This document shows, in pieces, positions 14,576-51,498 of a DNA stretch of 64,000 nt. The translations under genes and the position numbers were made by a program. Source of the stretch: Gammaproteobacteria bacterium (lineage in GTDB: Bacteria > Pseudomonadota > Gammaproteobacteria > Xanthomonadales > Wenzhouxiangellaceae). Each line of letters starts with the position of its first letter. The first letter of the stretch is position 1. The stretch covers positions 186,001-250,000 of the forward strand of contig JAJFKX010000020.1 of the NCBI GenBank assembly GCA_021772985.1, read 5' to 3'. The notes below the pieces were generated by a model. It did no database searches and was not told the DNA's origin. It saw only the letters and a list, made by a program, of their open reading frames with translations.

Positions 14576-17500
14576 TTAGCCGGAAGCCTGCAATAACCAT
14601 AGCTGCTGCAAAGCACTCGAAGCGGCATCAGTTTTAACACTGTTATCAGCTTGTACGCTCAATAATTCCAAGTTAATGCTGCTGGTTAAAGTAAAGTGGC
14701 CTGGATAGCCTGAAGCTGTGTATTGCCATAGTTGGCTGTCATCTTGCGGTACTTTTTGAGGGGCCAGACTGATATTGCCGGTGGCAAAGTCCACTGTGAG
14801 CACATCTTTACTGACAGGGTCCTGGATAAACAGAAAGCCCGCTGAACTGGCGCTGGCGATTAAATACCATTGCTGAGATTTATCGGATGTATTAATTGAC
14901 TGGGAAGTCAGGGTTCCATCGTTGTTTGACAATGCTTTATTGTTGCTGATCTGTGCAGCATTAATGCTGGTCAAAATCGAGGGTTGATCCAATACTGTAT
15001 TGCGTTCGGTTTCTTCAAATACCTGCTGACCCTGATCTATCAACCCGGCAACCGGTGTCACCAGGCCCAATTCTTTCCAGGTATCAACCATCACACTGTA
15101 ACCACCTTCATAATCAGAAATAGAATCAGACTGCGGTGGTATTTGGTTGCTCCGAAACCAGGGTATTTGGGTCAGCACAGGTGGGCTGTCAGTGTTGCGT
15201 TCAACCACGATATCCGGACGCAGTGCCGGCCACCATGAGATATTGCAAGACCAGAAATCGCCTTGCCATGGAATTGACATATAAGCTGCGATTGAACCTG
15301 GCGCTGTTGCTTGAGTGAAGCGAAATGGCTCGGCAAAAAATACTGATTCATGCATTAAATAAGTTAATTCAATCCCTGGATGGAAGCCACCGCCCACGGT
15401 TGGTTGCAAGGCGGCAAAATCCAATTGGTCGGGAATCGGAATATCCTGCCATTGTTGCTGGCCAGGGTCGCCTGGAACAAAATTACCGTTAACCCATTGC
15501 TGGAATTTTTCCAGTTGATGATTGGTCAGAGCCAACCACTGGTTGGGGTAGATAGTACCGTTGGTGTTATTTTCCGCGGGAGAACCACCATTACCGAACA
15601 GCCTGGGCATTAAATCAGCGCGTTGCTGTTGGTTACCAGCGGTAATGCCGGCTGGTGCTGCTGCTGGCGGCGGAGGTACGGTTACCGGTGTGGTGGGTGA
15701 TTGCTCGGTATAAACCGCTTGTGCCGGTGGTCTGATAAAACTGAACACAAACTGTCGCGAAATCAACTCACTTGAAGATTCCGGATTGGCCAGTGTGCTC
15801 AGGTAAGCCGGGTCTAAAAAGTCGCCTGATGTGCCTGGTCGGTGGCCATGAAAAGCTCGCTCATTGGTCCATGCGTAATCGGTTACAGTGCGCAAAATTG
15901 GATAGATATCACGATAAAAATTGACTGGAATGGCAGTACCTATCGCCGGTGCACCGACCCCGCTGTCATAAATAGATTGCAATTCAAACTCAGTCCCGTT
16001 ATCAGAAACCAACAAGTCTGCGCCTGAGCTGTTACCTACAGCATAATAAAGCTGTCCATTAAACGCGGTGATGGATACGCCTATACCTTCGGCGGCCGGT
16101 GTCTGACTGATTACGGCAAAAGTGAATGTTGATCCATCCTCAGAGCTTCCCAGGTAGGGCAAACCATCAGTACCTAAAAATCCGCAATATAATTTACCGG
16201 CATATACCGTTAGCGATAATGCACTGCCGGCAATGCCAGAGGCAGGCAACGGTATGCTATTGAAGGAAAAATTGCCGGGTGTGCCGTCTATGGAACTGGC
16301 GATCAGCAATTCAGCATTAGCTTGATTTGTGTTGATTGCATAATACAAAGCCCCATTAAATGCGCTAATAGCGGGGCTGGAGTAGATATCAATTGATGGA
16401 AGGTCAGCAATGTTTAAAGCGGTAAAACTGAACGTCCCATCTGGATTGGATATCCCGATATAAGGTGTGCCGTTGTTGTTTACAGCGTAATACAATTGAT
16501 TATTCAATGCCGCTACTGCAGGTGAAGCCTGTGTGGCAGGCGCACTGGTAAGCTGAGTAAAAATGTAGTCTGTTCCACTATTGGCATAGCCAAGATATGA
16601 TTGATAGTCGCCGTTACTGGTAGCCGCTATGTAGTTCTTTTCCTGAAAATAAGCTACTGCCGGGGAAAAACCGGTTTCGAATTCTGTGGAAACAGTAATA
16701 AAGTTTAAGTTGCCGGCATTTCCAGTACTGGATGTAGCAAGTTCGATGTGGTTGTTACTGGAACGGGCAAAATACATCGGGCCCTGGCCGGTATACGGGT
16801 CTGCTGCAGGGAACAAATCCAGCTGTAAGTCGAGCAACGAAACCACATTGTAGGAAGCCGGGGCATAATGTGGAGGCGCTACTGCAACCCATCCCCGCTG
16901 TCCGGCATTATCACCTGTACTGAATAAAAGATTGCCATCAGTATCAGCAACCACAGCATTGATTGAGCCTCCACAGGTATCGTCATACCAACCGGGGTTA
17001 TTAAAATAGGAATTGCCGTTGTATTCCGGGTTGGGTTCTTCCGCCTGCGATACCACTACTTTGGAAATCACGACTTTAGGTGTTGTGCAGGATTCTGAGA
17101 TACCTTTGCCGCCAACAAAAACCAGGCGTCCCTGAGTATCGGTATACAAATTGCCCAGACTGACAGTTGCTGGTGTGTAGCTGACGGGTATATCGCTGGT
17201 TGAGTTTTGAGGTGGATCGTATTTCAGGCGATTGGATAAGCGACTGTTTGAATCCTGAATATCAAAAATGGTGCTACCGCTGCCTTCAGTGTCCAACAGT
17301 TCTATTGGCCCCTGGCTGATGCCTGCAATGGTTTTTTGGCCGGGATCGATAATCAGCTTATCGCGTTGTTCCGGTGGCAACCCAGCTTGAATGGTGGAAT
17401 TGCGTAGATCATTCGGACTAAAGGCATATTGCCCCTGAAAAGCATAGTTGGCTGCTTTCATGTTGGTAACGTGAACCTGCCATTGAAGGTTGGCGGTTTG

Positions 17501-17749
17501 ACCATTAACGCTTGAACCGTCGGTGATCTCACCGATGAGATTACCGTCACTGTCATAACCGAATACCCGAAAGCGCTGCGCTTGTGGTTTGATGGCGCCA
17601 CTGCTGTCCTTGTACTGGTTATTGTCAGGGTTAGGAATCACCCCTGGGGTTTCCGGGCCAAGAAAATATTTGTCACTATTACCGACACGCCCCATGCCAA
17701 TACCGGGTGAAACTTTAATTGAAGCTACATTGGTTAATGTGTTAGTCAT
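14576..17749 (-). CDS. LodA-like CTQ quinoprotein with propeller insert and ricin-like tail
   Basis: 1057 residues, against roughly 700-800 for known LodA/GoxA. The N-terminus (SPGIGMGRVGNSDKYFLGPE, 14-33) and a later Asp-Ile-Tyr-Pro-Ile-Leu are family marks. Asp831 and Cys835 (Asp-Phe-Trp-Ser-Cys) match the LodA residues recalled as Asp512 and Cys516, followed by Trp-Trp-Pro-Ala-x-Arg-Pro-Asp. Trp891 (Val-Asp-Thr-Trp-Lys-Glu-Leu-Gly) is the likely partner of Cys835 in cysteine tryptophylquinone. Residues about 313-607 are an insert of propeller-like repeats, and about 920-1057 a ricin-like domain. The family oxidises amine or alpha-carbon groups of amino acids, making ammonia and hydrogen peroxide. 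There is no Sec signal, as in LodA. GAGGG precedes the ATG. Confidence 0.85.
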   Translation of the reverse strand: MTNTLTNVASIKVSPGIGMGRVGNSDKYFLGPETPGVIPNPDNNQYKDSSGAIKPQAQRFRVFGYDSDGNLIGEITDGSSVNGQTANLQWQVHVTNMKAANYAFQGQYAFSPNDLRNSTIQAGLPPEQRDKLIIDPGQKTIAGISQGPIELLDTEGSGSTIFDIQDSNSRLSNRLKYDPPQNSTSDIPVSYTPATVSLGNLYTDTQGRLVFVGGKGISESCTTPKVVISKVVVSQAEEPNPEYNGNSYFNNPGWYDDTCGGSINAVVADTDGNLLFSTGDNAGQRGWVAVAPPHYAPASYNVVSLLDLQLDLFPAADPYTGQGPMYFARSSNNHIELATSSTGNAGNLNFITVSTEFETGFSPAVAYFQEKNYIAATSNGDYQSYLGYANSGTDYIFTQLTSAPATQASPAVAALNNQLYYAVNNNGTPYIGISNPDGTFSFTALNIADLPSIDIYSSPAISAFNGALYYAINTNQANAELLIASSIDGTPGNFSFNSIPLPASGIAGSALSLTVYAGKLYCGFLGTDGLPYLGSSEDGSTFTFAVISQTPAAEGIGVSITAFNGQLYYAVGNSSGADLLVSDNGTEFELQSIYDSGVGAPAIGTAIPVNFYRDIYPILRTVTDYAWTNERAFHGHRPGTSGDFLDPAYLSTLANPESSSELISRQFVFSFIRPPAQAVYTEQSPTTPVTVPPPPAAAPAGITAGNQQQRADLMPRLFGNGGSPAENNTNGTIYPNQWLALTNHQLEKFQQWVNGNFVPGDPGQQQWQDIPIPDQLDFAALQPTVGGGFHPGIELTYLMHESVFFAEPFRFTQATAPGSIAAYMSIPWQGDFWSCNISWWPALRPDIVVERNTDSPPVLTQIPWFRSNQIPPQSDSISDYEGGYSVMVDTWKELGLVTPVAGLIDQGQQVFEETERNTVLDQPSILTSINAAQISNNKALSNNDGTLTSQSINTSDKSQQWYLIASASSAGFLFIQDPVSKDVLTVDFATGNISLAPQKVPQDDSQLWQYTASGYPGHFTLTSSINLELLSVQADNSVKTDAASSALQQLWLLQASG
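15929..16813 (-). repeat. Propeller-like repeat insert within the LodA-like gene
   Basis: This segment encodes about 295 residues absent from ordinary LodA proteins. Five or six degenerate units of 45-55 residues can be seen. Each has a Ser-Pro-Ala-Val/Ile-Ala start, then Asn-x-x-Leu-Tyr-Tyr-Ala, then a Gly-x-x-Tyr/Leu-x-Gly/Ala-Ser and a closing Phe-x-Phe. The pattern resembles blades of a beta-propeller. It lies between the family segments Val-Val-Ser-Leu-Leu-Asp and Asp-Ile-Tyr-Pro-Ile-Leu, so the quinoprotein core is interrupted but intact on both sides. Confidence 0.6.
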
Positions 17750-17805: not shown

Positions 17806-19644
17806 TTACTGGTCACCAGCGGAACTGGCTGCAGCTTGCTCTGGATACCATTCGCCTGCTGCCGTTGTTTTGAGCAGTGGCTGATTAATGGCATCAGGTT
17901 CACCGTCAAACGGCGCATTTTGGGTAATGAAGCTGAAATCTGAAGCGATCAAAGTTGAAGGGGCAGGAGCAGGTTGTCCTGCGATTACTGCCGGACCAAC
18001 CTGAGCATTGCCGTGGCAACCTTTACAGCCACCTCCGGTAAATGCGGTATGGCCCTTGCGCAGGTTGGTATTGGTTGGATCAATGGTGCCGTTATTATTA
18101 TCCAGCGTGCCGCTGAAACTGCGCAATACTTCGTTGGTTTCGGTGGTTATATTGGCCAGAAAGTAGTCGGTTGCTTCAGTATCTGAAGGGTCGGTTGCAG
18201 AACCCTGCACCCCAATCAGTTTGTAATACAGCCAGACGGAATCTGAAATACCACTGGCCGCCAGTAACTGACGCAGTTGTAAATGCACCTGACTGGTGAC
18301 TGCATTGGTTTCATCTGAAATGGGATGTGCTCTGGAGGTAACGGTTTGCTTATCTGGGTTAATCGGTGGGGTTGCATTGCGGTTGTAATAAAACAGGCTG
18401 CTATTGGGTAAACCTGAATTTAGATTATCGACCTGCTCAAAGGTGGCAAATACAAAAGTCGGATAGTTGGTGGTCTTATGAATAATGTGTAAACCAGTTA
18501 AACCATAAGGCAAGCTGTTTGAAGTGGGCGTGGCATCAATGGTTTCGTAGCAAAATGCCTCCGTATTGCTGGGGTCTGGATTACGATAACGGATGATGGG
18601 TGCGGTTAAGTACCGGCCGCTGTTATATTCGTCCAAGGTCAATTGCCGCCAGGTGGCTTTAACCAGGATGGTCCCTTCAGAGCCATTTTGATCATTCACT
18701 CCGGGTGGGAAGCAAATAATTGGATCAGTAGATACAGGGCAGGGTGCAACACCACCTTCGCCCAGGTTACGGACTGTATTGTAGGTGTTTTCCTGGGCGG
18801 TGGTTCTGTTGGTTTTCTGGTAGTAATTGTTGTCGACGATATAGTCAAACATCACCGCATTGGCTTTTGCTTCATAAATAAACCGGCGCGGTTGTTTGGG
18901 CAAACCCATATATAACGGGGTGTTTGCCGGCGGTGCACTGCCTGGATCGTTAGGGTCAGCGTCGGTAAACAGCGTGCATAAGTTAATTTCACTGGTTTCG
19001 TCCAGGTTATTGAACAAATGGATATCACTCAGGGTGGACGAAGTATTCACTGCCCAGCTGCCGGTGGCAGGGTTATATGCGCCACACTGCGGAATAGAGC
19101 CGCCATCAACACCGCGATAAGTGTATTGCGGAACCGCATTAAAGCTGGTTGGATAATTGGGATAGTTACCACTGGTATCGGCCATCGGATAGACTTCTAC
19201 GCGGTGTTTGTAAGTTTGCCACACCAACTGTCCGCTGCTATCAGGTTGGGCAAAATCAGCCGCTGTTTTGCTGGTATCCGGTTGGCCGCGGTTGGGTGTG
19301 GTGCTGGTATAATTGGATGGCCAGTTAAGTGCAATAAATTCCTGCCAGGCAAAGTTCGCTAATGCAGTCTGTTGTTGGCTGCTGTCCTCAACCGGCGCTG
19401 GTGCGTCATGCGGTACCTGGTAGGCAGTGCTGGCAAAGAATACTGGTATTGCAGCGTCATCGGTATTGGTGTTCTCGGAATTCTCATCGGTTTCTACCAG
19501 TGCTTCCACATCTGGTTCAGGGCTGACGGGATTATCGGTTGAAGCGTTGTCATTGGTGTTGCAGCCACTGATGATAATACTGGTTGTTAGCAACAATAAA
19601 GCTATCAGCCTGGTCAGCAAAGAGTAATTGAAGTAAGAATGCAT
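17806..19644 (-). CDS. CxxCH (c-type haem motif) lipoprotein
   Basis: 612 residues. The signal peptide ends in Ile-Ile-Ser-Gly-Cys with lipidated Cys28. A long Ser/Thr/Asn/Asp-rich linker follows, then a large domain with Asn-Phe-Ala-Trp-Gln-Glu-Phe-Ile-Ala-Leu-Asn-Trp-Pro near 94-106. One c-type haem motif, Cys-Lys-Gly-Cys-His (540-544), stands near the C-terminus. No methionine follows it, so a Met sixth ligand would have to come from upstream. Several Cys pairs may form disulphides. AGGAGGG lies five bases before the ATG. It is the first gene of a block with lodA (56-bp gap) and lodB, and may pass electrons from, or anchor, the quinoprotein. Confidence 0.7.
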   Translation of the reverse strand: MHSYFNYSLLTRLIALLLLTTSIIISGCNTNDNASTDNPVSPEPDVEALVETDENSENTNTDDAAIPVFFASTAYQVPHDAPAPVEDSSQQQTALANFAWQEFIALNWPSNYTSTTPNRGQPDTSKTAADFAQPDSSGQLVWQTYKHRVEVYPMADTSGNYPNYPTSFNAVPQYTYRGVDGGSIPQCGAYNPATGSWAVNTSSTLSDIHLFNNLDETSEINLCTLFTDADPNDPGSAPPANTPLYMGLPKQPRRFIYEAKANAVMFDYIVDNNYYQKTNRTTAQENTYNTVRNLGEGGVAPCPVSTDPIICFPPGVNDQNGSEGTILVKATWRQLTLDEYNSGRYLTAPIIRYRNPDPSNTEAFCYETIDATPTSNSLPYGLTGLHIIHKTTNYPTFVFATFEQVDNLNSGLPNSSLFYYNRNATPPINPDKQTVTSRAHPISDETNAVTSQVHLQLRQLLAASGISDSVWLYYKLIGVQGSATDPSDTEATDYFLANITTETNEVLRSFSGTLDNNNGTIDPTNTNLRKGHTAFTGGGCKGCHGNAQVGPAVIAGQPAPAPSTLIASDFSFITQNAPFDGEPDAINQPLLKTTAAGEWYPEQAAASSAGDQ

Positions 19645-38031: not shown

Positions 38032-40908
38032 TTACTGCTGCGTTTCAAACCCATCCACTAACAACTCTTCACTGGCTGGGCAAGCCTGGACTGCGACATC
38101 ATCGATAAACCAGCCATCATTGGCACGACCTTGTGATCCATCGGTGCCCAGGTGGAAACGAAAGCGTACGGTTTCACCCTGGTAGTTTGATAAATCTACA
38201 ATTGAACGGACAAAGTTCTCCGGGTCGGCGCACCAGGCGGTTAGCGCCGAGAGGGGATTACCGCTGGAGTTGACGTCACCGTCATAAGGGTCGGTTAACA
38301 GTTGTGCGTTAACGATTTGAGTCCAGTTGAGACCATCATCGATGCTGATCTCGAGTATGCCGGCATCCCAACAACCGCCACCTACAGCGTCTTCCAGGGT
38401 TTGACTGTTTTGATAAGCAAGCACCATCGGCAATTGGCCAACCGGCAAAGTGATGGCGGGGGAAACCAGTTGTTGATCGGAAACACTATCCAGGTCTTCC
38501 GCAAACCAGGCGAAACTGCCGCTGGTGATTTCCAACCCCGAACGCTGCCAGGTGTCCTGGGTGCCGCTGTGGGTCCAGCCGTTATCACCGTTTTCAATAT
38601 TATCGGAAAATAACGTCATCGGGGTGACACCAATCGGGCAGTCTCCCGGGGCCGGCTCGGTCATGAAATTGAAGGTTGGTGAAACAATACTGTTGCCGCA
38701 GCTATTGGTTGCGGTAACTCGCCAGTAATGCCGGGTATTGGAAGCCAGACTCAGGTCTGGTGAGGCCATTGTGGAGGTAACCGTGGTGGAAAAAACGATG
38801 TTATTGAAGTCAAAATCGGTGGCAACTTCAAGGTTGTAGGTTTCGGTATTACTACCTGACCAAGTGAATAAGGGTTGTAACTCAACATTATTTTGCGCAT
38901 TGCCTGGGCTGCTTAAAGCTGGCTGTACCGGCACATCGGCAAACGTAATCAGGTTCAAATCGAGACTACGATCATCTGCCCCGACCGCAGTGCCTTCAAC
39001 CTGAAATATGAAGTTGCTGGTACCCAGTCCGGCTGTGTTATTAATGGTCAGTTGGCTGCTGCCCGGCAGCATGGGGACCGGGTTGGGAACAAAGCCGACG
39101 GTCGCTGGTGCTGGTAAATTCAGCACGGCTAAGTCAACCGGTTGATCAAATTCAGCAATCGAACCCACAGTCAGGTTATACACAGCCGGATCACCTGCAC
39201 AAATCGACTGGCCTGCATCTTCTACACCCAGGCTGAATGCAGGTGAACCGCACTCATTAAACCGGAAAGCGCCTATGCGTAACTGCCAATTGCCACCATT
39301 AGTGACGAAATACTCATTGGTATACCAGAATGTGCAATCGTCCACCGGGTCGACATTCAGGGAAGAGTAATCGCCCCAGCGGCTGCTGGTGGTTTGTGAG
39401 CCGGTACCTTCAACAATACTGCCTTCACCCTGGGGGAAGGTGCCCAGTGGGTCACTGGCTAATCTGCCACTGTATCTTAGGCTGGGGAATACGCTGTTGT
39501 CATCGGAAGCACTATAACCAAGGGCAATATTACCTGCGGAATCCATCGCTGCAGAACCCATCCAACGGTGGATGCCATCACTGGATCCAGGTGAATAGGT
39601 GCCTTCCTGATGAATAACGGGGTTGCCGCCTGGCAACCTTAATTCCCACCAGCGAGTACCGGCAACTTGATTTGGCCCTTCAACTGACTGGCTGGTGACC
39701 AGCGATTCGTGGATGCCAAAATTGCGATATGCCAAGCGGTGAATCGGGCGTTGCCGGTAAGACAAAATATCGACTAAATTGCCGGTATCAGGTTGCGGAA
39801 TGCAACTGCGCCCACCTCCTGGACAGGGGAAAATTGTATCAAAAGCGGCAATCGGAATAGTGTCAGTCAAAGTAAAACTGGAAGCCGGTGGGTTATCAAA
39901 ATCAGCGACAAAACGCCAGAAAGTCAACGCGTCCTGAGTGGCTCCATAAGGTCCGCCATCATCCATGCTGCCGACAAAATATTGAGGGCTGCCGTTCGGT
40001 GGTAAATTGAAGCCGTCTAAATCGGCGGGCAGCAATCCGTCGCCGGTGTTGTCTGCGCCAACCACAGTGGGGGAAACAAAAAATGAAATGATGGTTGGGT
40101 TGGGGTTGCCTGCAATCAGTTCATCACGATCAAGTGCAAACGCGCCAATGCCCTGAAAAGGACCGCCAAGCCCGGCAAAATCGCGGGTGCTGATGTAATA
40201 AGCATCGGACCACACACCATATTTGGGGTAGTCTGGGAAATTGGTTCCATTATCTATCGCATAGCGGAAGTAGCTGCCGGTCGGATCAGGTGAGGTGGAA
40301 ATTGCGACGCAGTTGAAAAAGGTCGGCCCAGAGGCAGTAAACTGGCTGAGTATCCAGCGATCGGCAAGCTGGTCATGGAGTACTATCGGGTCTCCGCTAT
40401 TATCGTTTTCGCAGTCACCACCAAAACCGGCCCAGACAGTATTGTTATTGGTTGGTCCCATTACCGATGTGCCGGTTTTATCGAATATTTCAAAAACCAG
40501 ATTACTCATTACTACATAATGATTGGGGCCAACATCACCAACCGGGTCAGGCGGTGAGGGTGTGCCGGTATTATCGCTGCGCATCGGGCCGTCAAAGCTA
40601 ATGGTTGGTGCTGGAATGCTGCCAAAGCCAAGTCGGGTTTGGGCAACGGCGTCAGGTGTTTGCGGGCTTTGCTGAGCTTTTTGTGTTGCATTACCGGGTG
40701 GGTCAATAATCAAACCACCATTACTTCCCTGTGGCGCAGTCAATCTGGGTGGAATATCCCGCAACGGTGGCGATACATCAAATTTTACAATGGCATGTAC
40801 ACCTCTATAAACAGCTGCCTGTTGATTTTGATCAGCTGCAAATAAGCTTAAACAGAATACTGTGCACAGTGACAATATAAGGATCTGAGAACTGTATTTG
40901 CCAATCAT
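38032..40908 (-). CDS. Large secreted protein with C-terminal DGFE motif
   Basis: 958 residues with a signal peptide (about 1-25). Most of the chain (90-560) is a beta-rich domain mentioning Asp-Pro-Val-Gly-Asp-Val-Gly-Pro-Asn-His-Tyr, of unknown function. A fibronectin-like stretch near 680-750 follows. Then comes a carbohydrate-binding-like domain (about 765-940) with Asp-Asn-Ile-Glu-Asn-Gly, Thr-Trp-Gln-Arg and Gly-Trp-Phe-Ile-Asp-Asp-Val, as in choice-of-anchor or MAM-like modules. The end, Leu-Leu-Val-Asp-Gly-Phe-Glu, is the short C-terminal motif frequent in exported proteins of marine gammaproteobacteria. It is probably cell-surface or secreted. Confidence 0.75.
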   Translation of the reverse strand: MIGKYSSQILILSLCTVFCLSLFAADQNQQAAVYRGVHAIVKFDVSPPLRDIPPRLTAPQGSNGGLIIDPPGNATQKAQQSPQTPDAVAQTRLGFGSIPAPTISFDGPMRSDNTGTPSPPDPVGDVGPNHYVVMSNLVFEIFDKTGTSVMGPTNNNTVWAGFGGDCENDNSGDPIVLHDQLADRWILSQFTASGPTFFNCVAISTSPDPTGSYFRYAIDNGTNFPDYPKYGVWSDAYYISTRDFAGLGGPFQGIGAFALDRDELIAGNPNPTIISFFVSPTVVGADNTGDGLLPADLDGFNLPPNGSPQYFVGSMDDGGPYGATQDALTFWRFVADFDNPPASSFTLTDTIPIAAFDTIFPCPGGGRSCIPQPDTGNLVDILSYRQRPIHRLAYRNFGIHESLVTSQSVEGPNQVAGTRWWELRLPGGNPVIHQEGTYSPGSSDGIHRWMGSAAMDSAGNIALGYSASDDNSVFPSLRYSGRLASDPLGTFPQGEGSIVEGTGSQTTSSRWGDYSSLNVDPVDDCTFWYTNEYFVTNGGNWQLRIGAFRFNECGSPAFSLGVEDAGQSICAGDPAVYNLTVGSIAEFDQPVDLAVLNLPAPATVGFVPNPVPMLPGSSQLTINNTAGLGTSNFIFQVEGTAVGADDRSLDLNLITFADVPVQPALSSPGNAQNNVELQPLFTWSGSNTETYNLEVATDFDFNNIVFSTTVTSTMASPDLSLASNTRHYWRVTATNSCGNSIVSPTFNFMTEPAPGDCPIGVTPMTLFSDNIENGDNGWTHSGTQDTWQRSGLEITSGSFAWFAEDLDSVSDQQLVSPAITLPVGQLPMVLAYQNSQTLEDAVGGGCWDAGILEISIDDGLNWTQIVNAQLLTDPYDGDVNSSGNPLSALTAWCADPENFVRSIVDLSNYQGETVRFRFHLGTDGSQGRANDGWFIDDVAVQACPASEELLVDGFETQQ

Positions 40909-47110: not shown

Positions 47111-47818
47111 TTGAACACAGACCCATTAGTCATGCAATTGCAACGTCATAACTTATTTAGTGTGCCCATCTGGAAGAGCAGCATATCGCTGCTTGAACAG
47201 CAGGCGGACAGTTTGCGCGAGCAGATTTTTAAATGGTGGGAGCAGGGGCACTTTAAAAAGCACAATAACGGCTATGGTTACCAGACACCAAGCAATTTGT
47301 TTGACCAGCAATACCTGGAGCAATTACCAGCGTTAAGAGTATTAAGACAAGCATTTGCGGATCGGGTCACAAAGATACTGCAACAACGTGAAAACCATAC
47401 CGTGCATCTGCCTGCACAACAGTATGCTTATATGGCATGGGTGCTGGTGCAAACCAACGAAGAATGGGTCAATGGCAGCTGGCATGATCATGCGCCGGCA
47501 TTGATCAGTGGTTGCTATTACTTACAGCAGCCGGAGACAGATAACGAACAGGAAGGAGCATTAGCGTTTCAAAGACCTGGTGCAGTCGATACATTTGTCG
47601 AGCACGTGCAATATGTCAAGCCCCGGCAAGGCGATTTCATTTTATTTCCTTCATATCTTTCACATCGCCCACAACCTTGCCCATCAGCTCAGTCATTGCG
47701 TATTTCCATCAATATGGATGCTTATGTACACTGGATGCATTGGGATGAGGTCGGCAAACCTGCAATACATCCGGATCGGTATCGTCAAATGCTCGAGCAA
47801 AGTTTAGGAATTGAATAG
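47111..47818 (+). CDS. TIGR02466-type 2OG-Fe(II) oxygenase-like protein
   Basis: 235 residues. The motif Asn-Gly-Ser-Trp-His-Asp-His-Ala-Pro-Ala-Leu-Ile-Ser-Gly (about 120-133) and the later Phe-Pro-Ser-Tyr-Leu-Ser-His-Arg-Pro (about 179-187) are the HxD and distal His of the double-stranded beta-helix oxygenases in the TIGR02466 family. They probably bind iron and use 2-oxoglutarate; the substrate is unknown. The first residues read as TTG-started, with a later in-frame ATG at residue 8. The next gene starts inside its stop codon (TAGTG), so the two are translationally coupled. Confidence 0.82.
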   Translation: MNTDPLVMQLQRHNLFSVPIWKSSISLLEQQADSLREQIFKWWEQGHFKKHNNGYGYQTPSNLFDQQYLEQLPALRVLRQAFADRVTKILQQRENHTVHLPAQQYAYMAWVLVQTNEEWVNGSWHDHAPALISGCYYLQQPETDNEQEGALAFQRPGAVDTFVEHVQYVKPRQGDFILFPSYLSHRPQPCPSAQSLRISINMDAYVHWMHWDEVGKPAIHPDRYRQMLEQSLGIE

Positions 47819-48627
47819 TGCGATTGAGGGATAAAGCAAAATTGAGCAGCTGCGAATTGCGATATTCCTATTGGGTATCTCTGCTTACGCTAATGATGGT
47901 TGTGGTCAGTGGCTGTGGACCACTGCTTAAGGATGAGTCTGAAGGAGAGCTGCCGGCGGAAATTAGTGATCGCTCGATTCTGCCCGAACCGGTTGCCCCG
48001 GATGAACCTGTTGTGGTCATTGAACCGCCACCGTCACCGAGACCCAAACCCGCACCACGGTACATATTGGAAGGGCGGTTGGATTTAACTGCTGATAATG
48101 TAAATATTCTGGAAGGCAGCTCCATGAATCATGCGGTTGTCTACTTTGAGCCTCACATTAAAGCTGCCAAGGGTCAGCCGGGTCAGTATGAAGTTCGGGC
48201 CGTTGAGAAATTGTTCACACCTGCAGTACTGGTGATCCCAGTGGGTAGTGAAGTTGCGTTTTTGAATCAAGACGAAATTCTGCACAATGTTTTTTCAGTG
48301 TCATCCGCCGCAGAATTTGATTTGGGCTTTTATGGTCAGGGGGAATCACGCTCATATACTTTTTATCAGCCAGGCAGAGTGCAGGTAAATTGTAGTGTGC
48401 ACCACTCAATGAGCGTCGATATTCTGGTATTGGATACGGCTTTTTTTGCACAACCCGACGATCAGGGTAATTTTATTATCGGCAATCTGCCGGCTGGGGA
48501 TGGAGACTTAAAAATCTGGCATCCACAGGCAGCTATTGATAGTTACACGTTATCTATTCCTGTTGTTGATGAACAGGCGTTTGCACTCAAATTAACCAAG
48601 CCGCGTGTCCCTTTCACGAATGAATAA
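47818..48627 (+). CDS. Cupredoxin-domain lipoprotein
   Basis: 269 residues from a GTG start overlapping the previous stop by one base. The signal ends in Val-Val-Ser-Gly-Cys with lipid Cys33, followed by a Pro-rich linker (55-82). The cupredoxin domain (about 84-205) has the type 1 copper ligands: His156 (Ile-Leu-His-Asn-Val-Phe), Cys192, His195 or His196, and Met198 in Asn-Cys-Ser-Val-His-His-Ser-Met. A C-terminal stretch resembles the carbohydrate-fold tail of methylamine-utilisation (MauL-like) proteins. It should be a periplasmic electron carrier or copper sensor. The kinase gene begins 47 bases downstream. Confidence 0.82.
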   Translation: MRLRDKAKLSSCELRYSYWVSLLTLMMVVVSGCGPLLKDESEGELPAEISDRSILPEPVAPDEPVVVIEPPPSPRPKPAPRYILEGRLDLTADNVNILEGSSMNHAVVYFEPHIKAAKGQPGQYEVRAVEKLFTPAVLVIPVGSEVAFLNQDEILHNVFSVSSAAEFDLGFYGQGESRSYTFYQPGRVQVNCSVHHSMSVDILVLDTAFFAQPDDQGNFIIGNLPAGDGDLKIWHPQAAIDSYTLSIPVVDEQAFALKLTKPRVPFTNE

Positions 48628-48674
48628 ACCAGCAAAACCAGGTTTCGTAACGACCTTGATCTACTGATAGTGTT

Positions 48675-50696
48675 ATGAATTTAGCTACCAGACTTTTTGT
48701 TACCTTTGCCGTACTGCTGGCATTATCGGTTGGCGCTGCCATTGGGCTCACTTATTGGCTTGGGCGCAGTACTGTAACCAACCAGATTGACAGTGCTTTT
48801 ATTACCAACCAGTCGGTGCAACGGTATTTTTTGGAGCAGGAAACACGCGAATTAGCATTGGTTTCTGAGTTGATTGTCGCTGATCGTGCTTTTGTGGCTT
48901 ACGTGTCTGAAGCATTGAGTGTTGGCGAGCAGCAGAGCCTGGACATCCGTTCGGTAACTGACTTATTGAATGCCCGGATTACTGAGTATGGCTTCGATTT
49001 TGCGGTAATCCTGAGTCCGGATGGAATGGTCCAGGTGGAAACCGGCAATCTGGTTTCATTGGCTGTTGATTTATCAGCTAAAACAGTTGTTGCAGATGCG
49101 CTGCAATCGTTGGCTATCCAAAGCGGTTTATGGATAGAACAGAATCAGGTTTTACAAGTAGCCGTGGTGCCGTTACGGACTGGTCGAACGATCCAGGCAT
49201 ATTTGCTGACTGGTAACCGGGTTACCAGTGAATTTGTAGCTGATTTAGCACGTATTTCCGGGACTGAACTGGCCTATGCGTCACTCCAAAATGATGGTGC
49301 CCACATTGCTACTACCACATTAAGAATCAGTGAGAGTGATGCATTGGCGGCCTTTTTATCTATTGATCAAGAAGTATCGGATAAATTGAACAGCGGAGAG
49401 GTGACTGAACCCAGAGCAGTCAAGCTGGGCGGGCAAAACTGGATACTCCGAATTGTTCCTTTGACCAACACCGGGAATCAGGCGATGTTGATATCATTGG
49501 TTCCAGAGGCGGAATTATTTAAGACCTTTCAGGATGTGGCCAATGTGTTGATCATTGCCGGTTTGGTTTCGATCATGTTGGCGTTGGTTGTTTCGGTGAC
49601 CGCTTCCAGGCGATTATTGCAACCCATTGAAACCCTGGTTGGGGTTGCTGAAGACGCAACCCGTGGCGAGTATCACAGTCATATAGATGTCGCAGGCAGT
49701 ACTGAGTTACGGCGTTTGGAACGGGCATTCAATAGAATGGTTTCTGACCTGCGTGAACAGCAGGCAGCGGATTTGTATTTTGAAGACTTGTCTCAGAGGC
49801 ACATTATCAACCAGCGTGTCAGTGAAACACGAGAAAATCTCAGTAGCCCATTTGATGACATGCAGACCTTTCCTCCAGGCAAATTATTGGGTAACCGCTT
49901 TGAGATACTTAAGTTGATCGGGAAGGGTGGTATGGGTGTGGTCTATGAGGCAATTGATCGCGAATTGGATGATATTGTCGCAATTAAGACTTTACGCCCG
50001 GAGCTGGCTAATGATGAGGATAAAATTGACCGATTGAAATCTGAAATCCGATTGGCTCGCCGGATTGCACATCCAAATATTGTACGGACATTTGAATTCG
50101 CACAAGCTGAAGGTTTCCCATTGATTTCCATGGAGTATGTGCGCGGCGTTACTTTAGAAGATGCTATTCGCCAATCCGGACGGGTGAATTATTACGCATG
50201 CCTGAGGCTTGCTTTGCAAATTTGTGACGGTGTAGCAGCGGCTCATCGTGTTGGGGTGCTGCATCGTGATCTAAAGCCAGGCAATGTAATGATTACCCAT
50301 CGCGCCAAGGTGATGGATTTTGGCATTGCACATCCAACTGTGATGCAGCATGATCAGGGTGTTGATGAGGCGCCTGTAACGATCGAAGGTACGCCGGCTT
50401 ATTTGGCCCCTGAACAATTACGTGGCGAAGTTGCAGATGAGCGATCAGATATTTATTCTCTGGGTATTTTGTTAACCGAAATGTTTACCGGTAAAGTGCC
50501 GCACACCAATACCGATACACGTACAATTTTCAAATCACACTTAAGCAATACTTTGGTGCTGCCTTCGCAGCTATGGTCAGGTATCCCGCAGATGTTGGAA
50601 GCTATTATTTTACAGTGCCTGGAATTGTCTCCGGATGACAGGTGGCAATCTGTAACTGATTTGCGAGAAGCAATTAATTTATTTCGAGTTGCTTAA
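48675..50696 (+). CDS. Transmembrane receptor Ser/Thr protein kinase with HAMP
   Basis: 673 residues. The order is a membrane helix (about 8-30), a periplasmic sensor (about 35-285), a second helix (about 290-312), a HAMP linker (about 313-367), and a Hanks-type kinase (about 408-670). The kinase is complete: Gly-Lys-Gly-Gly-Met-Gly loop, Lys438, His-Arg-Asp532-Leu-Lys-Pro-Gly-Asn, and Asp548-Phe-Gly. It should sense a periplasmic signal and phosphorylate cytoplasmic targets. A sensor-HAMP front is usual on histidine kinases and rare on Ser/Thr kinases. The neighbouring cupredoxin lipoprotein is the obvious candidate signal partner. It is the last gene of a three-gene unit. Confidence 0.9.
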   Translation: MNLATRLFVTFAVLLALSVGAAIGLTYWLGRSTVTNQIDSAFITNQSVQRYFLEQETRELALVSELIVADRAFVAYVSEALSVGEQQSLDIRSVTDLLNARITEYGFDFAVILSPDGMVQVETGNLVSLAVDLSAKTVVADALQSLAIQSGLWIEQNQVLQVAVVPLRTGRTIQAYLLTGNRVTSEFVADLARISGTELAYASLQNDGAHIATTTLRISESDALAAFLSIDQEVSDKLNSGEVTEPRAVKLGGQNWILRIVPLTNTGNQAMLISLVPEAELFKTFQDVANVLIIAGLVSIMLALVVSVTASRRLLQPIETLVGVAEDATRGEYHSHIDVAGSTELRRLERAFNRMVSDLREQQAADLYFEDLSQRHIINQRVSETRENLSSPFDDMQTFPPGKLLGNRFEILKLIGKGGMGVVYEAIDRELDDIVAIKTLRPELANDEDKIDRLKSEIRLARRIAHPNIVRTFEFAQAEGFPLISMEYVRGVTLEDAIRQSGRVNYYACLRLALQICDGVAAAHRVGVLHRDLKPGNVMITHRAKVMDFGIAHPTVMQHDQGVDEAPVTIEGTPAYLAPEQLRGEVADERSDIYSLGILLTEMFTGKVPHTNTDTRTIFKSHLSNTLVLPSQLWSGIPQMLEAIILQCLELSPDDRWQSVTDLREAINLFRVA

Positions 50697-50889: not shown

Positions 50890-51498
50890 TTATTCCACTG
50901 AAATTATCCAACAACGACCACCAGGGCCAGTTTCAACGTGAACAGAGCCACCAGGGCCTATTATCCAGCAACTATCACCATGCAGACCTATGCCTATGAT
51001 ATCGTTTCTATTATTGGCACGCACCTCAACATCAACCGGGTTTTGAGCCGAATTTATGCCTGTAGCAGGTTCGAACAGCATGGTTTCAATTCTCATCCGA
51101 GTTCTTTGAACCACAGCGCCGTTTTTGTCTATAAGTAAGCCAACCGCACCCAATGTTGGGTCCAGTTCAAGCCTGAATGTATAAAAGCCTTGGCTTAAAC
51201 TGAAGCTGGAATTGGCTGATGGCGCAAAATACAATAGTCCAAGATCGGTGCCTGTGAAAAAATCCAAATCCAGCATTTCGGTTTGAAATGATGCAAAAGC
51301 CACGGTGCCTTGAGAAGTGGAAGTCACTTCCATAGCTGCCGGACTAATGCGGGGATCTTGCTGAGACAACAATGAGATCGCGTTACTATTAGATTGCTGA
51401 AAGTCTTCAATGACACCAAATTGGGATTGGGCCGAAGCTGTGCTTGCAAAGCCAAATGCAAAAATTAAAGACGTAAAGATAAATAAAAGATGTTTCAT
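50890..51498 (-). CDS. Small secreted protein of unknown function
   Basis: 202 residues with a signal peptide (about 1-23, ending Ala-Ser-Ala). The mature part has no family I recognise. It is Ser-, Gln- and Phe-rich at first, then beta-rich. The tail holds Cys177 and Cys196, each followed by Trp-Ile-Ile, and two Gly-Pro-Gly-Gly turns between them, suggesting a disulphide-closed loop. AGGAGG lies six bases before the ATG. A near-consensus sigma-70 promoter and a palindrome precede it. The gene is bounded by palindromes and AT-rich spacer, and stands alone. Confidence 0.65.
   Translation of the reverse strand: MKHLLFIFTSLIFAFGFASTASAQSQFGVIEDFQQSNSNAISLLSQQDPRISPAAMEVTSTSQGTVAFASFQTEMLDLDFFTGTDLGLLYFAPSANSSFSLSQGFYTFRLELDPTLGAVGLLIDKNGAVVQRTRMRIETMLFEPATGINSAQNPVDVEVRANNRNDIIGIGLHGDSCWIIGPGGSVHVETGPGGRCWIISVE

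What the first reader, a model, noticed from the sequence alone, without database searches (positions are those of the whole stretch)
47111..50696. Cupredoxin lipoprotein paired with a receptor Ser/Thr kinase
An oxygenase-like gene, a type 1 copper lipoprotein (ligands His156, Cys192, His195/196, Met198) and a kinase with a periplasmic sensor lie in tandem, the first two overlapping by one base. The kinase could read copper or redox state through the cupredoxin.
Basis: partly seen in the sequence, partly recalled or inferred. Interest (0 to 1): 0.62.

Follow-up and report, generated by a model that had tools for sequence, protein, structure and literature searches.

The report
Copper protein paired with exchangeable receptors
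A bacterial blue-copper-type protein is usually encoded next to one type of membrane receptor whose inner, signal-sending half differs from species to species, so the copper protein is probably the part that tells the receptor when to fire.

Summary
Confirmed: a 2OG-Fe(II) oxygenase, a cupredoxin lipoprotein and a transmembrane Ser/Thr kinase lie in tandem at 47111-50696. The oxygenase is a bystander, beside the cupredoxin in this genus only. Cupredoxin and receptor are a unit far beyond it: 26 of 30 strong cupredoxin hits in 369 class genomes, and 30 of 38 in 299 phylum genomes, have this receptor within 3 kb; 24 of 29 strong receptor hits have the cupredoxin. Weaker receptor hits mostly lack it (6 of 22 have it). 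Cut-offs were set after seeing the lists. The kinase is not the constant part: of 77 linked receptors, 39 end in GGDEF-EAL, 25 in a Ser/Thr kinase, 6 in a class III cyclase, 5 in a histidine kinase, 2 after HAMP. All four copper ligands are kept in 77 of 81 linked cupredoxins. Many loci add a probable outer-membrane barrel (54 of 80) and a truncated globin (27 of 80). Best reading: the cupredoxin docks on the double-Cache ectodomain and gates it by copper or redox state. Partnership is well supported; docking and the copper/redox signal are inferred. No description found in open-licence papers.

The parts
47111..47818 (+). 2OG-Fe(II) oxygenase (PF13759; TIGR02466 below cut-off); genus-level neighbour, not part of the conserved unit
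47818..48627 (+). Cupredoxin lipoprotein gene (269 aa, GTG start)
47914..47916 (+). Lipobox Cys33 codon (VSGC); next residue is Gly
47917..48066 (+). 50-residue Pro-rich linker (13 Pro)
48067..48432 (+). Cupredoxin domain, residues about 84-205; boundaries approximate
48283..48285 (+). Copper ligand His156
48391..48411 (+). Copper loop Cys192-x2-His195-x2-Met198 (amicyanin-like spacing; that comparison is recalled)
48433..48624 (+). C-terminal beta-sandwich, weakly CarboxypepD_reg-like
48675..50696 (+). Receptor Ser/Thr kinase (673 aa)
48756..49529 (+). Periplasmic double-Cache-type ectodomain (residues 28-285)
   Evidence: dCache_3 or CHASE4 Pfam hits in homologues
49605..49757 (+). HAMP domain (residues 311-361)
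49899..50648 (+). Ser/Thr kinase domain (residues 409-658), catalytic motifs present

Best explanation
The cupredoxin is a dedicated periplasmic co-receptor. SHOWN: it is encoded next to a receptor of one architecture (TM, double-Cache-type ectodomain, TM, HAMP) in the window's class, in other classes of the phylum and in Verrucomicrobia, while the receptor's cytoplasmic output is exchanged. INFERRED: the folded copper domain docks on the ectodomain; whether it is copper-loaded, or Cu(I) or Cu(II), changes the docking or the shape of the ectodomain; the change passes through TM2 and HAMP to the output, here Ser/Thr phosphorylation. In the window the cupredoxin has a lipobox and a 50-residue Pro-rich tether that could reach the receptor from the outer membrane. 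Copper or electrons would come from outside through the neighbouring barrel, globin or MauG-type peroxidase where those genes are present; none is adjacent in the window.
For: Linkage: 18 of 24 family hits, 26 of 30 class hits at E <= 1.2e-28, 30 of 38 phylum hits at E <= 1.3e-33, 24 of 29 receptor hits at E <= 4.7e-22; each class and phylum count includes the window's own pair. In 72 of 80 linked loci the receptor follows the cupredoxin on the same strand within 160 bp. Five output classes over 77 receptors, 8 output changes as the fewest on the cupredoxin tree. Cupredoxin distances track the ectodomain (Pearson r 0.83) better than the HAMP end (0.59) in 48 pairs. Ligands intact in 77 of 81 linked cupredoxins. 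No Cys, His or Met column above 40% in 48 receptor ectodomains, so no conserved metal site in the receptor itself. The pair is also on annotated plasmids of Caballeronia, Comamonas and Novosphingobium (ectodomain confirmed).
Against: No physical interaction, copper binding or signalling is shown. The distance correlation is not corrected for species relatedness, the HAMP stretch is short, and among Ser/Thr kinase pairs the difference is small (Spearman 0.89 against 0.83). Ligands are also kept in 21 of 21 unlinked cupredoxins, so their retention is not special to the pair; four linked ones (L088, L090, L091, L131) lost one ligand and keep the receptor. Strong cupredoxins without the receptor: G275:C456, G390, G358, G259 in the class list; L098, L106 (contig edge), L111, L113, L114, L123, G390, G149 in the phylum list. 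Six family hits (L020-L025) have none, L022, L024 and L025 being checked only in short flanks. Below the class cut-off only 5 of 12 fetched cupredoxins are linked. Receptors without a cupredoxin: G354:C174, G275:C349, G275:C424, G410:C6, G189:C59 (contig edge), and 16 of the 22 weaker hits. Search models were built from linked seeds, and cut-offs were set after seeing the lists. Globin and MauG neighbours also fit an electron-transfer chain.
Confidence: 0.53

Rival explanations
1. The cupredoxin is an electron carrier of a periplasmic redox chain (with the globin, the MauG-type peroxidase or an outer-membrane conduit). The receptor senses a small molecule of the same process and is merely co-regulated.
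For: CCP_MauG gene between cupredoxin and receptor in L121 (4.6e-57) and a related ORF in L122; truncated globin in 27 of 80 linked loci; L113 keeps cupredoxin, DUF3034-like and globin-like genes without the receptor; Cache domains commonly bind small molecules (recalled).
Against: Receptor pairing is more constant than any redox partner: 26 of 30 class hits, against 27 of 80 linked loci for globin and 3 of 80 for CCP_MauG. No such partner was found next to the window pair. A shared small ligand does not by itself explain pairing through five output classes.
Confidence: 0.26
2. The cupredoxin fold is a structural co-receptor and copper is incidental; another ligand or envelope stress is the signal, as with RcsF or DbfQ.
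For: Ligand losses in L088, L090, L091 and L131 with linkage kept; tethered lipoprotein form with Pro-rich linker in the window and some others.
Against: All four ligands are kept in 77 of 81 linked cupredoxins, across the output classes and in Verrucomicrobia too.
Confidence: 0.13
3. The cupredoxin buffers or delivers copper and the receptor gates copper homeostasis without contact.
For: Type 1-like site; exported protein.
Against: No copper-export gene was noticed among the recurrent neighbour clusters of the first 54 pairs (read by eye, not a family search). Type 1 sites are usually electron-transfer sites (recalled).
Confidence: 0.06
4. Chance adjacency in one genome.
For: None for cupredoxin and receptor; the oxygenase is such a lineage neighbour.
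Against: Linkage in family, class and phylum samples.
Confidence: 0.01

Closest known systems
Type 1 cupredoxins: amicyanin, pseudoazurin, plastocyanin (PF00127)
   Same: Fold and His/Cys/His/Met ligand set
   Different: Extra C-terminal beta-sandwich, in some a lipobox plus long linker; encoded with a receptor; only marginal Pfam and NCBIfam scores. Public annotation calls several relatives 'methylamine utilization protein'.
DbfQ-DbfRS (Vibrio cholerae)
   Same: Small periplasmic protein encoded beside the receptor; there it binds the sensor domain directly (PMC12714742, abstract and outline seen)
   Different: Not described as a metalloprotein in the abstract; its partner is a histidine kinase
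RcsF-IgaA-Rcs
   Same: Outer-membrane lipoprotein with Pro-rich linker that works with barrels and signals to the inner-membrane protein IgaA (PMC7917084, passages seen)
   Different: Unrelated fold and no copper (recalled); one fixed pathway
CHASE4 GGDEF-EAL receptors of P. aeruginosa (PA14_37690)
   Same: CHASE4-type periplasmic sensor on GGDEF-EAL; copper binding reported (PMC13277305, 12 passages seen)
   Different: There copper binds the CHASE4 domain itself, with a suggested contribution of His39; 'cupredoxin' and 'adjacent gene' do not occur in the main text. Here the receptors have no conserved Cys, His or Met.
VtrA/VtrC-type co-component systems
   Same: Periplasmic heterodimeric receptor found through domain and operon organisation (PMC9214523, start of abstract seen in a search listing)
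   Different: Different folds; no metal centre known to me (recalled)

Membership tests
Type 1 cupredoxin | Cupredoxin beta-barrel fold | tested here: met
   Model pLDDT 95.3, Foldseek to pseudoazurin and amicyanin
Type 1 cupredoxin | His, Cys, His, Met ligands | tested here: met
Type 1 cupredoxin | Binds copper, blue absorption | not testable with these tools
   Needs purified protein
Amicyanin (methylamine pathway) | NCBIfam equivalog score 110.2 bits | tested here: not met
   16.7 bits
Receptor Ser/Thr kinase (Hanks type) | Kinase domain with HRD and DFG motifs behind a TM-flanked ectodomain | tested here: met
CHASE4 domain (PF05228) | Score above gathering threshold | tested here: not met
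   Window 17.3 against 26.2 bits
dCache_3 (PF14827) | Match to the family in the window protein | tested here: not met
   No match listed for the window protein; 35 of 51 receptors match; Foldseek hits are ectodomains recalled as Cache-type
TIGR02466 oxygenase | Curated cut-off 62.5 bits | tested here: not met
   45.8 bits; PF13759 is above its cut-off
DbfQ-like periplasmic modulators | Direct binding to the sensor domain | not testable with these tools
   No complex modelling on hand

The most novel reading that the evidence does not exclude
A trans-envelope 'electron or copper receptor': an outer-membrane barrel (with a globin or MauG-type peroxidase in some lineages) feeds copper or electrons to a blue-copper protein, whose metal state is the ligand read by a double-Cache receptor. 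The pair is a portable input module plugged into c-di-GMP, cyclic-nucleotide, His-kinase or Ser/Thr-kinase outputs.
Probability: 0.3. Interest if true: 0.85.

Novelty: new variant of a known kind. Interest (0 to 1): 0.62.

Why it matters
Blue-copper proteins are known as electron carriers. If they also serve as dedicated co-receptors, a widespread set of genes now labelled 'methylamine utilization protein' gains a testable role, and many orphan GGDEF-EAL, cyclase and kinase receptors gain a candidate input. The exchange of outputs behind one input pair is a natural experiment in receptor modularity, and the members that lost a ligand allow a test of whether copper itself is the signal.

Tried and rejected
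Oxygenase as part of the unit: rejected.

Kinase as the conserved partner: rejected; the output changes.

Direct copper binding by the receptor: no conserved Cys, His or Met in the ectodomain.

DUF3034 elsewhere in the window's own genome: one match to 35 positions in a 51-aa frame (24.8 bits, 25.4 with its neighbours against a cut-off of 25); not accepted as a gene. The globin and the other barrels were not searched for in that genome.

A strict lipobox scan found 9 of 81 linked cupredoxins but missed some that look like lipoproteins by eye (for example L033), so no frequency of lipidation is claimed.

Long-ORF gene picking in GC-rich loci gave antisense ORFs, so neighbour counts rest on homology searches. 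That the four barrel-like neighbour families are barrels is inferred by eye from signal peptides and C-terminal strands and one sub-threshold MtrB_PioB match; not modelled.

Rows left out: from the output counts L030, L032, L035, L073 (cut, overlapping or split ORFs); from the 48-row tree and alignments also L027, L031, L038 (near-copies) and everything fetched. Near-copies L026/L027, L029-L032 and L037/L038 remain in the 80.

Plasmids: 51 records matched one GGDEF-EAL-type cupredoxin; I opened 3, all 3 with the pair; the other 48 were not examined.

A read-through fusion of cupredoxin and receptor for complex modelling was considered after and not submitted.

Literature: 10 searches, open-licence PMC only. 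Nine bear on the pairing; one search was for RcsF. I saw listings (10 of 28 papers, 18 of 19) and opened three papers in part. No listed title or abstract start reports the pairing; most listed papers were not opened and subscription papers are not held.

Full report
OBSERVATION. The three ORFs are present at the stated coordinates and strand with the one-base overlap. Domain searches give a 2OG-Fe(II) oxygenase, a cupredoxin just under the Pfam cut-off, and a HAMP plus Ser/Thr kinase receptor. The copper ligands are His156, Cys192, His195 and Met198; His196 is not conserved. AlphaFold models are confident (cupredoxin pLDDT 95.3; receptor residues 1-385 pLDDT 90.9). Foldseek places the first among Cu nitrite reductase, pseudoazurin, amicyanin and plastocyanin, the second among ectodomains of chemoreceptors and kinases (query-normalised TM of the listed hits 0.26-0.56).

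LINKAGE, CUPREDOXIN SIDE. In 43 family genomes, 20 have the cupredoxin, 24 hits in all. Eighteen hits have the receptor next door. The other six (L020-L025) have none in flanks of up to 1.5 kb; three of their loci were fetched longer (L050-L052) and show none. The L050-L052 proteins share a variant motif, so I take them for a paralogue group, not placed on a tree; four of the six genomes also hold a linked copy. In 369 class genomes, 30 hits reach E <= 1.2e-28. Twenty-six, the window's included, have the receptor within 3 kb; G275:C456, G390, G358 and G259 do not. Of 12 weaker class hits that were fetched (L081-L092; L083 holds two), 5 loci are linked and 7 are not. In 299 phylum genomes, 38 hits reach E <= 1.3e-33. 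Seven were in the class sample (5 linked; G390 and G149 not). All 31 new ones were fetched and 25 are linked, so 30 of 38. The six others are L098, L106 (at a contig edge), L111, L113, L114 and L123.

LINKAGE, RECEPTOR SIDE. One search lists hits of the receptor model in the same 369 genomes; the list was cut and few candidates per genome were scored. Counting by hand the hits that span the ectodomain (query start <= 175, end >= 350): of 29 at E <= 4.7e-22, 24 (the window's included) have a cupredoxin hit within 4 kb. The misses are G354:C174, G275:C349, G275:C424, G410:C6 and G189:C59; the last starts near a contig edge, and that genome's cupredoxin also lies at one. Of the 22 weaker such hits, 5 have one and a sixth (G376); 16 have none found. 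So the pairing belongs to this receptor subfamily, not to all double-Cache receptors. The models were built from linked seeds (of the class sample only the window is a seed of A1 and A2; A5 includes class loci), and cut-offs were chosen after seeing the lists. By chance a given receptor would lie within a few kb of the cupredoxin well under 1% of the time (my estimate, about one hit per 3-4 Mb).

ARCHITECTURE. Over 80 linked loci (54, 26; near-copies included, window counted apart), 72 have the receptor directly downstream on the same strand within 160 bp (median coordinate gap 3, stop codon not counted). The other eight: a 1.8-kb gap with foreign-looking ORFs (L056), receptor upstream with a gap of 0.8-0.9 kb (L064, L068, L070; a barrel-like ORF fills it in L068 and L070), two divergent pairs (L077, L082), and two with a gene between (L121, L122). 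In L121 that gene is a di-haem CCP_MauG peroxidase (4.6e-57).

OUTPUTS. Pfam on 51 linked receptors: Ser/Thr kinase 25, GGDEF and EAL 17, class III cyclase 4, HATPase 3; the remaining 2 are the Dokdonella proteins L026 and L027, which end after HAMP (by subtraction). Of 30 further receptors, 26 are linked: GGDEF-EAL 22, cyclase 2, hybrid histidine kinase 2; unlinked L125-L128 make up the rest, 2 GGDEF-EAL and 2 cyclases (split by subtraction). Total 77: 39, 25, 6, 5, 2. On the quick cupredoxin tree of 48 rows outputs cluster but need 8 changes at the fewest; 21 of 45 inner branches are unsupported, so the number is soft. GGDEF-EAL, cyclase and histidine kinase mix within one 18-row clade with SH-aLRT 98. 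Cupredoxin distances correlate with ectodomain distances (r 0.83) more than with the HAMP end (0.59); within GGDEF-EAL pairs Spearman 0.86 against 0.42, within Ser/Thr kinase pairs 0.89 against 0.83. Shared species history is not removed.

COPPER. All four ligands are kept in 77 of 81 linked cupredoxins (window included) and in 21 of 21 unlinked ones. The four losses are L088 and L131 (Met to Ser), L090 (Met to Asn) and L091 (second His). L088, L090 and L091 form a 99% clade with L089, which keeps all four; L131 is not on the tree. So retention is not special to linked members, and in this corner the pairing outlives a full type 1 site. Receptor ectodomains have no conserved Cys, His or Met.

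THIRD GENES. Among 80 linked loci: DUF3034 in 28; truncated globin in 27, all 27 also with DUF3034; three other probable barrel families in 14, 7 and 5. The four barrel sets do not overlap, 54 of 80 in all; CCP_MauG in 3 (two DUF3034, three globin and one CCP_MauG members confirmed by Pfam). Annotated plasmids show the cassette: DUF3034, group 1 truncated hemoglobin, 'methylamine utilization protein', EAL protein in Caballeronia sp. SBC2; globin and DUF3034 divergent from cupredoxin and EAL protein in Novosphingobium sp. EMRT-2; a DUF4394 gene, cupredoxin and EAL protein in Comamonas aquatica. All three EAL proteins carry this ectodomain. None of the neighbour families was found at L033, the genus mate; the window's flanking ORFs show none either.

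MECHANISM. Step 1, export of the cupredoxin, with a lipobox here: sequence. Step 2, type 1 copper: ligand set and fold, binding inferred. Step 3, docking on the ectodomain: inferred from linkage through output exchange. Step 4, copper or redox dependence: inferred, weakest. Step 5, HAMP to kinase: general knowledge of HAMP receptors (recalled). The tether recalls RcsF (PMC7917084, passages); an adjacent periplasmic protein that binds a sensor domain has precedent in DbfQ (PMC12714742, abstract).

KNOWN OR NEW. Cupredoxin, Cache receptor and each output are known kinds. None of the listings of nine searches of open-licence papers shows a report of the pairing; most listed papers were not opened. 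The nearest is copper binding by a CHASE4 domain itself (PMC13277305, passages). I rate it a new variant of a known kind.

Noticed in passing
window 14579-17749 (-): 1057-aa LodA-like L-lysine epsilon-oxidase (LodA_N 1.8e-46); the neighbouring ORF 17809-19644 has no Pfam match at 0.001.
   Followed up: no
window 50890-51498 (-): 202-aa secreted-looking protein without a Pfam or NCBIfam match; a similar-looking ORF sits in the same place in the genus mate (L033 4107-4700).
   Followed up: no
window 38035-40908 (-): 958-aa protein with only a weak InhA-like MAM match near its C-terminus (2.2e-5, below cut-off).
   Followed up: no
L088, L090, L091, L131: Cupredoxins that lost one copper ligand but keep a GGDEF-EAL receptor.
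   Followed up: partly
L121 4184-5194, L122 5901-6236: MauG-type di-haem peroxidase (in L122 a short related ORF) between cupredoxin and receptor, with a PAS hybrid histidine kinase as output.
   Followed up: partly
L026 and L027 6607-7731: Dokdonella receptors that end after HAMP with no output domain, still followed by DUF3034 and a globin.
   Followed up: partly
L113 4958-6960: Cupredoxin followed by DUF3034-like and globin-like ORFs (read by eye) but no such receptor adjacent; a GGDEF-EAL protein without this ectodomain match lies about 3 kb away.
   Followed up: partly
L071 5376-6877: Unlinked cupredoxin preceded by a protein that looks like a PiuC-type 2OG-Fe(II) oxygenase (recalled resemblance, not searched) and followed by a barrel-like ORF.
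   Followed up: no
L056 4420-5834: ORFs on the other strand between cupredoxin and receptor that look like type III CRISPR Cas10 pieces (recalled resemblance).
   Followed up: no
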